Source of the DNA: an uncultured Microcaldota archaeon
GTDB taxonomy: Archaea; Micrarchaeota; Micrarchaeia; Anstonellales; Bilamarchaeaceae
Direction of reading: 5' to 3'
DNA: 38,971 nt
Assembly: GCA_903835325.1 (NCBI GenBank)
Contig: CAILMU010000240.1
Location: 1 to 38,971 of the forward strand
Shown: positions 1-1,765 of the stretch, piece by piece
How positions within the stretch are numbered: position 1 is the first letter of the stretch
Layout of the letters: each line of letters begins with the position of its first letter
The notes under the pieces: model-generated
Seen by the model: the letters and a program-made list of their open reading frames with translations, nothing else
What the model was told of the DNA's origin: nothing
The model's database searches: none
Position numbers and translations under genes: made by a program

Positions 1-1765
1 GTATCTTCTTGCCCTCTTCCAGGTCCCGCTCCTCCATGAATGGCAGTCTTGCCCCGCTCGAGTAGCTGCCCATCCCGCCAGTGTTACCACAGATGGCTAC
101 ACGACCGTTTCTCCTTACCAAAACGAATCCGGTCGAAACATTTACGCACCCAACATAGCCGTTGTACCTAATTTTCCGTATGTGTTTTTTTCTTATCGAG
201 GTCTTTGTTCTATTTTTCATCTCGATAGAATAAACCGGATTCGCCTTATATGTTCTATGATTGAGAGGATTTTTCATCGTGGTGCGTTTATCTGTCACGA
301 TGATGCCGTTGCACCCGATCTTGGCCAGCACTTCTTGGATATCATCTATCAGTCGTTTTGACGCGCTATGAAATCGTTGTTTCCCCATATGGATATCGCC
401 GTCGCCCATGCAGAAATATTTCAGGAATTCCCGGATGGTTCTTTCATCAGAATTCTTGATATAATCCGGCACAAACTTATGATAGCAATCCCCGAAAGGT
501 AAAAGGAATCGTGCTAATTGAGCTGAATTTGTTCTAAATTTGCCATTGTTATTTTCATAAATGAACTCGAATGGGAATTCTTTGAGCACTTTTTCCATCG
601 CTTTTAAATGCCTAGATTTTTTTGTTTGGCAAATATATACTCTCCCTCTGCCTTGGCGGTCAACTTGGGAATATCCTTCAGAAAGAAATAATGCCAAAAA
701 CCGGACCCATTTTATGAACGTAATCTTCTTTCTCCTGAAATTGAAATGTTTCTTAAGCTGTGGAATCGAGTAGTTTTTGTGGGCCACGCCATCCCATTTA
801 GCGCTCTGGAGAATAAAATGTTCTCCTTTGTATTCTTGCGCTTCTAAAACAAAAACCTTTTTCCTGCCTTTTCTTTGTTGCAGAAGCATTCTATGATTGG
901 GAGTTACAATAAGATCTACGTCTCTATTTTTGAAATTAATCATTTGGCCGGCATATTTCATCCAATATATTTTCTTTGGTTTTTGGAACTGGAATTTTTT
1001 CAAATATTTATCATACACCATGACTTTATCGCTGGATTTCAATTTATCAAAGGTTTTCCATCCGTCATCCGTTAGTACCTCTGTGTCTGAAGAGTAGCAA
1101 TTCGGCCCGCGGTCGTTTTCCCACGCCCTTTTATGGTCCTGCACAGGGGGCATGGCGCAAATAGAGGAACCGTCCGAGAAGCATTGCAGGGTGAATTCCT
1201 CGCCGACAAGCTTCTCCTCTATCAGGACGCTCCCGTCCTTTTTGATGAGGGAATCGGCATATGCTATCTTCTCGCTGATATCAGTGAAATGGTCTCCGCT
1301 CACCTTGACGCCTTTGCCTCCGGTGAGGCCGAGAGGCTTGATGGCGACCATGCCGTAGTCTTTTATCACGCGCTCAGCGTCTTCCTTTGTCTTCACGACT
1401 TCGTGCTTGGGGGAGCCGGGGACCTTGTGGCGCTCGAGCAGGAAGCGCATGAAGGATTTGTCCCATTCTATCCTGGATGCGGCTTTCGTCGGAGATGCGA
1501 CAGCCGTGCCGGCAGCCTCCAGTGCGTCGCTCACCCCCGCTTCAAGGGTGGCATCAGGGCTCGCGAAACCAAGGTCGAACGATCTGCCGGAAATAGCCTT
1601 GGAAACCGCACCCGCATTCTCGATATCGCATATCCAGTGCTTCTTGGCAAGGTTAGCGATGGCAGGGTTCTTCTTCGACATCACGGCATAGAGCTCGGCA
1701 TCCTCAGCAAGCCGTTCGGCTATGATATGCTCCCGCGCCCCGTTGCCGATAAGTAAGACCCGCAT
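1..1765 (-). CDS. purD: Phosphoribosylamine-glycine ligase (GARS), partial at window edge, interrupted in frame by an intein
   Basis: Reverse-strand translation from ATG at 1765: MRVLLIGNGAREHIIAERLAED...GLTGGKGVKVSGDHFTD...VLIEEKLVGEEFTLQCFSDGSSICAMPPVQDHKRAWENDRGPN-[intein]-TGGMGSYSSGARLPFMEE. ATP-grasp/PurD motifs; one continuous frame through the intein. Gene runs off the left edge. Confidence 0.93.
   Translation of the reverse strand, partial: MRVLLIGNGAREHIIAERLAEDAELYAVMSKKNPAIANLAKKHWICDIENAGAVSKAISGRSFDLGFASPDATLEAGVSDALEAAGTAVASPTKAASRIEWDKSFMRFLLERHKVPGSPKHEVVKTKEDAERVIKDYGMVAIKPLGLTGGKGVKVSGDHFTDISEKIAYADSLIKKDGSVLIEEKLVGEEFTLQCFSDGSSICAMPPVQDHKRAWENDRGPNCYSSDTEVLTDDGWKTFDKLKSSDKVMVYDKYLKKFQFQKPKKIYWMKYAGQMINFKNRDVDLIVTPNHRMLLQQRKGRKKVFVLEAQEYKGEHFILQSAKWDGVAHKNYSIPQLKKHFNFRRKKITFIKWVRFLALFLSEGYSQVDRQGRGRVYICQTKKSRHLKAMEKVLKEFPFEFIYENNNGKFRTNSAQLARFLLPFGDCYHKFVPDYIKNSDERTIREFLKYFCMGDGDIHMGKQRFHSASKRLIDDIQEVLAKIGCNGIIVTDKRTTMKNPLNHRTYKANPVYSIEMKNRTKTSIRKKHIRKIRYNGYVGCVNVSTGFVLVRRNGRVAICGNTGGMGSYSSGARLPFMEERDLEEGKKI
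83..1099 (-). mobile_element. Intein with LAGLIDADG-type homing endonuclease domain inside PurD (339 aa)
   Basis: Begins CYSSDTEVLTDDGWKTFDKLKSSDKVMVYD (block A), has TPNHRMLL (block B), FLALFLSEGYSQVD and FLKYFCMGDGDIHM (dodecapeptide-like C/E blocks), and ends GYVGCVNVSTGFVLVRRNGRVAICGN (blocks F/G) followed by Thr as +1 residue. Clearly more AT-rich than flanking exteins. Confidence 0.92.

What the first reader, a model, noticed from the sequence alone, without database searches (positions are those of the whole stretch)
83..1099. Intact LAGLIDADG intein inserted in the PurD ATP-grasp motif GPN|TGGMG
The minus-strand frame reads PurD up to DHKRAWENDRGPN, then a complete 339-aa intein (Cys1, TPNHRM block B, two dodecapeptide-like motifs LFLSEGYSQ and YFCMGDGDI, C-terminal VAICGN), then resumes PurD at TGGMGSYS. 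No stop or frameshift interrupts it. The insertion point is the most conserved PurD loop, as expected for inteins. PurD is not among the archaeal intein hosts I know best (DNA polymerase, RFC, RIR, etc.), so this may be a rare or new insertion site.
Basis: partly seen in the sequence, partly recalled or inferred. Interest (0 to 1): 0.85.

Follow-up and report, generated by a model that had tools for sequence, protein, structure and literature searches.

The report
Mobile intein inside archaeal PurD enzyme
A purine-synthesis gene (purD) of a small uncultured archaeon carries an intact self-splicing, selfish protein element (an intein with a homing endonuclease) at the enzyme's conserved GPN|TGGMG loop; the same element sits at exactly this spot in purD of at least 64 other organisms, archaea and some bacteria, so it is a genuine but ordinary kind of mobile element in a host gene that, as far as I could check, has not been described as an intein host.

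Summary
Observation confirmed. Window 1099..83 (-) encodes a complete 339-aa intein in PurD, GPN|CYSS...AICGN|TGGMG; the rest of PurD is on contig C172 (98-bp overlap). Intein and LAGLIDADG models match. An AlphaFold model (pLDDT 94) is closest to LAGLIDADG-bearing archaeal VMA inteins. All class 1 nucleophiles are present (Cys1, block B Thr/His, terminal Asn, Thr+1); the penultimate His is Gly and F:4 is Cys, a known variant. The host belongs to Micrarchaeota (genus containing Ca. Bilamarchaeum). A 94%-identical PurD and nearly all same-genus PurDs lack the intein, so the gain is recent.

It is not a one-off. 64 other distinct PurDs (various DPANN archaea, Altiarchaeales, Thermoplasmata, Promethearchaeota, bacterial Omnitrophota) carry it at the identical residue. 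These inteins form one clade, are more alike (58%) than their exteins (42%), and keep both endonuclease acids: a horizontally spreading homing element. Its sister clade sits at the same site in PurD-like ATP-grasp proteins whose intein-free homologues occur on viral contigs.

I found no paper on a PurD intein in the open-access library. Verdict: new member (new host/site allele) of a known kind. Splicing and DNA cleavage were not tested.

The parts
1100..1765 (-). PurD N-extein, residues 1-222, ending ...WENDRGPN
   Evidence: TIGR00877 1.3e-53 over 1-222; GARS_N and GARS_A
83..1099 (-). Complete intein, 339 aa (Cys1 to Asn339)
   Evidence: LAGLIDADG_3, TIGR01445; model pLDDT 94.3 with intein folds as top PDB hits; 64 other distinct PurDs with identical junctions
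1..82 (-). Start of PurD C-extein (TGGMGSYS...); continues on contig C172 (L002)
   Evidence: 98-bp exact overlap; joined extein 431 aa
1097..1099 (-). Cys1 codon, N-terminal splicing nucleophile (block A)
   Evidence: C in 65/65 PurD-site inteins aligned
887..904 (-). Block B TPNHRM (Thr66, His69)
   Evidence: T66 and H69 invariant in 65/65
671..697 (-). LAGLIDADG motif 1 (LALFLSEGY), probable catalytic acid E141
   Evidence: E141 in 64/65; helix 128-141 in the model
395..427 (-). LAGLIDADG motif 2 (FLKYFCMGDGD), probable catalytic acid D233
   Evidence: D233 in 65/65; helix 219-232 in the model
83..166 (-). C-terminal splicing region, blocks F and G (YNGYVGCVNVSTGFVLVRRNGRVAICGN): Cys318 at F:4, Gly338 penultimate, Asn339, then Thr+1
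   Evidence: C318, G338, N339 invariant in 65/65; +1 Thr in all 68 records

Best explanation
It is a full-length class 1 intein with a LAGLIDADG homing endonuclease, at the ATP-grasp loop GPN|TGGMG of PurD (phosphoribosylamine-glycine ligase) in a Micrarchaeota genome. Shown: an intact frame, all splicing nucleophiles, both endonuclease acids, an intein-like modelled fold, identical junctions in 64 other distinct PurDs, intein-free close relatives, and intein history decoupled from host history. Inferred: the 770-aa precursor splices itself (Cys1 N-S acyl shift; transfer to Thr+1; Asn339 cyclisation without the usual penultimate His; O-N shift) to give active 431-aa PurD; the freed intein cuts intein-free purD alleles at the conserved GPN/TGG coding sequence, and repair copies the intein in. 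The allele is a selfish element spreading horizontally among archaea and some bacteria.
For: Models. Structure: (TliVMA intein 7qsu E 1.2e-15, 7qss TMq 0.70; PI-PfuI; I-DmoI for the endonuclease part); sequence profile to PDB inteins. Junctions in relatives. Catalytic residues kept. Endonuclease part as conserved as splicing part (0.589 vs 0.577 mean pairwise identity) and all copies 334-344 aa, no mini-intein among them. One clade for PurD-site inteins, 100/100 support. Intein identity exceeds extein identity by at least 15 points in 1146 of 2080 pairs, the reverse in 4; rank correlation only 0.17. Empty sites: intein-free PurDs at 94, 90 and 83% identity; 15 of 16 same-genus genomes have an uninterrupted PurD and none has this intein. 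At least 8 gain/loss changes on the extein tree. No second canonical PurD was found in the genome, while purF and purM are present, so splicing is probably needed.
Against: No biochemical proof of splicing or cleavage. The penultimate His is Gly, which in other inteins can slow Asn cyclisation. The genome is a 90%-complete draft, and the gene is completed by joining two contigs. The Hint_2 match is below its curated cut-off.
Confidence: 0.95

Rival explanations
1. The element is a splicing-competent intein whose endonuclease is no longer active in this lineage, carried as a relic after a recent horizontal gain.
For: Homing activity is not tested; inactive endonucleases are common in intein life cycles (general knowledge).
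Against: Both catalytic acids intact and nearly invariant in the family; endonuclease part as conserved as splicing part; a 94%-identical PurD lacks the intein, so the gain looks recent.
Confidence: 0.15
2. The intein has been domesticated as a post-translational switch: splicing is conditional (for example redox, through Cys1, Cys318 and Cys337), so PurD activity and purine synthesis are gated.
For: Insertion in a conserved loop of the ATP-grasp domain; Cys1 and Cys318 invariant; conditional splicing is reported for some inteins (for example PMC6195587, abstract).
Against: Cys337 is Ser in 43 of 65; sporadic presence within one genus argues against a conserved regulatory role; no direct evidence.
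Confidence: 0.07
3. Assembly artefact, or a constitutive inserted domain that is not removed.
For: The contig ends 82 bp after the junction.
Against: C172 overlaps exactly; the same junction in 64 independent precursors; continuous 833-aa frame in G049; intein-type residues and fold.
Confidence: 0.01

Closest known systems
Class 1 inteins with LAGLIDADG endonuclease (TliVMA, PhoVMA, PI-PfuI, PI-PkoII)
   Same: Cys1, block B TxxH, terminal Asn, +1 nucleophile; Hint fold with LAGLIDADG insert
   Different: Host is PurD, a purine-synthesis ATP-grasp enzyme; penultimate Gly instead of the usual His; Cys at F:4; only 10-16% identity in the structural alignments
Inteins at the homologous site of PurD-like ATP-grasp proteins (GP[NY]|TGEMG/TGEQG; P0051, P0065-P0077, L062)
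   Same: Sister clade, 100/98 support; same residue junction; 40-46% identity
   Different: Host protein is a divergent PurD-like protein (GARS_A/GARS_C weak, no GARS_N), whose intein-free homologues lie on IMG/VR viral contigs
Inteins ending ...RRNGK...GN in phage terminases, nucleotide enzymes and NAD-epimerases
   Same: Related full-length inteins with penultimate Gly
   Different: About 30% identity, other hosts and sites
Class 3 inteins (e.g. AceL NrdHF, 6zgq)
   Same: Cys at F:4
   Different: This one has Cys1, and Arg rather than Trp after the block B His, so the class 3 route is not indicated

Membership tests
Class 1 intein | In-frame insert whose removal restores a normal host protein | tested here: met
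   431-aa extein aligns gap-free at the junction with solved PurDs and with a 94%-identical intein-free PurD of 431 aa
Class 1 intein | Cys/Ser at position 1 and Cys/Ser/Thr at +1 | tested here: met
   Cys1, Thr+1; invariant in the family
Class 1 intein | Block B TxxH | tested here: met
   TPNH; T66 and H69 in 65/65
Class 1 intein | C-terminal Asn (penultimate His usual but not obligatory, PMC4031507) | tested here: met
   Asn339 in 65/65; penultimate is Gly in 65/65
Class 1 intein | Hint fold | tested here: met
   Model pLDDT 94.3; top PDB matches are inteins; TIGR01445 above cut-off
Class 1 intein | Protein splicing | not testable with these tools
   Needs expression
LAGLIDADG homing endonuclease | Two dodecapeptide helices, each with a catalytic acid | tested here: met
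   E141 (64/65) and D233 (65/65); LAGLIDADG_3 1.4e-8; I-DmoI-like fold
LAGLIDADG homing endonuclease | Cuts the intein-free allele | not testable with these tools
   Only the conserved target sequence and the empty alleles were shown
Class 3 intein | No N-terminal nucleophile; Cys F:4 with Trp after the block B His | tested here: not met
   Cys1 present; residue after the block B His is Arg (59/65) or Lys; only Cys F:4 is shared
Class 2 intein (KlbA type) | Ala1 | tested here: not met
   Cys1

The most novel reading that the evidence does not exclude
A single, undescribed intein lineage homes to one ATP-grasp loop in both cellular PurD (archaea and bacteria) and virus-encoded PurD-like ligases, with viral copies as the vehicle that carries it across phyla and domains.
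Probability: 0.3. Interest if true: 0.55.

Novelty: new member of a known kind. Interest (0 to 1): 0.4.

Why it matters
It adds PurD, a core metabolic enzyme outside the usual replication and repair hosts, as a widely shared intein host. It also gives a clean system (one site, many gains, empty alleles, about 65 intact full-length copies) for measuring homing across phyla and for testing splicing without a penultimate His. Practically, some archaeal PurD genes are annotated as hypothetical proteins, probably because of it.

Tried and rejected
Second intein copies of this family in the genome: none; the weak hits are unrelated inteins in a radical SAM activase-like protein (C135) and SufB (C35), plus a chance match (C240:4708). 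PurD inteins on viral contigs: none among 50 viral relatives. Intein-bearing PurD-like proteins on viral contigs: three further queries (four attempts) got no answer from the server, so that stays open. Class 2 and class 3 readings rejected on residues. Literature: searches for intein with PurD or phosphoribosylamine terms gave nothing; two papers searched in full text do not mention a purine or phosphoribosyl host.

Full report
What is there. The minus strand of window 1-1765 is one open frame: PurD residues 1-222, a 339-aa insert at window 1099..83, and the first 27 residues of the PurD C part. The window is the complete contig C240 of a 1.59-Mb draft genome in 246 contigs. Contig C172 begins with 98 bases identical to the window's end and completes PurD; joined, the precursor is 770 aa and the extein 431 aa. 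The extein without the insert matches solved PurD structures end to end, with the motif GPNTGGMG uninterrupted in them.

Why it is an intein. Pfam LAGLIDADG_3 (1.4e-8), NCBIfam intein_Nterm (25.1 bits, cut-off 24.5) and, weakly, Hint_2 match the insert. An AlphaFold2 model from 28 relatives has mean pLDDT 94.3, and its best PDB matches are LAGLIDADG-containing inteins: TliVMA, PhoVMA, PI-PkoII, PI-SceI, PI-PfuI, then free endonucleases such as I-DmoI. In 65 aligned inteins at this site the residues Cys1, Thr66, His69, Asp233, Cys318, Gly338 and Asn339 are invariant, and Glu141 is kept in 64. Thr is at +1 in all. This is a class 1 set of nucleophiles. The penultimate Gly and F:4 Cys depart from the commonest residues, but Cys is the second commonest residue at F:4, and splicing without a penultimate His has been reported (PMC4031507 and its references).

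Not a single case. A search of 5.8 billion proteins with the intein found PurD or PurD-like precursors as nearly all of its best 75 hits. 64 distinct PurDs besides this window have the junction GPN|C...GN|TG(G/S)MG (one has GEN). Source names include Altiarchaeales, Aenigmarchaeota, Woesearchaeota, Diapherotrites, a nanoarchaeal MAG, Parvarchaeota, Promethearchaeota and the bacterial Omnitrophota; genome contigs add Thermoplasmata and Lokiarchaeia.

Host and recency. PurD relatives in the same genus are named Micrarchaeota, 'ainarchaeum' and Ca. Bilamarchaeum dharawalense. The closest PurDs, at 94, 90 and 83% identity, are intein-free. No same-genus genome other than the window's has this intein, and 15 of 16 show an uninterrupted PurD. 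On the extein tree, presence and absence need at least 8 changes, for example P0033 beside L053 (without).

Horizontal spread. The PurD-site inteins form one clade at 100/100 support. Their mean pairwise identity is 58% against 42% for their exteins; in 1146 of 2080 pairs the intein is more alike by 15 points or more, the reverse in 4; rank correlation is 0.17. The inteins are AT-richer than their flanks in all seven loci measured. The endonuclease part is as conserved as the splicing part (0.589 and 0.577), and all copies are 334-344 aa. Together this fits a currently homing element kept by its endonuclease, at a site that hosts cannot easily change; preference of inteins for conserved sites is established (PMC2814812).

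A sister group. Related inteins sit at the homologous residue of divergent PurD-like ATP-grasp proteins (GP[NY]|TGEMG or TGEQG); they are the sister clade, 100/98. Intein-free homologues of these proteins occur on IMG/VR viral contigs. A viral reservoir is therefore possible, but no intein-bearing viral copy was seen, and repeat searches failed for technical reasons.

How it works. Shown here: anatomy, conservation, empty sites, decoupled history. Inferred from established intein biology: splicing by the class 1 route, and homing by cutting the empty purD allele. No second canonical PurD was found in the genome, while purF and purM are present, so splicing is probably required for purine synthesis. 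Neither reaction was tested.

Verdict. It is a new host/site allele of a well-known kind of element, apparently not described in the open literature searched.

Noticed in passing
L006 (G000:C135:11522-11713 region): Another intein-like LAGLIDADG insert in a radical SAM activase-like (AmrS/PflA-like) protein of the same genome, in a 910-aa frame, between GTFGCNFACSF and CNCQNWDIS.
   Followed up: partly
L007 (G000:C35:9301-10125 region): A SufB protein with an intein (HYVEG|CFTAGTEI ... VAAHN|CSAPIY) in the same genome.
   Followed up: partly
L010 (G022:C32:74715-75758): Related intein in a NAD-dependent epimerase, RYFN|CYDEE...GN|CYGPRQ, in a same-family genome; a similar one appears on a viral contig (L106, minus strand).
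   Followed up: no
P0051: A PurD-like ATP-grasp protein of 1152 aa with two inteins, at GPN|TGEMG and at EFT|CRFGYP.
   Followed up: no
L137, L138, L139 (IMG/VR contigs): Intein-free PurD-like ATP-grasp proteins (TGEMG loop) on viral contigs; their role in the virus is unknown.
   Followed up: partly
window 1-98 and L002 1-98: The assembly breaks with a 98-bp overlap across the intein tail and C-extein, as a k-mer graph branch would give; possible strain variation there.
   Followed up: partly
window 21918-26376: Adjacent gyrB and gyrA genes (DNA gyrase) in an archaeal genome.
   Followed up: no
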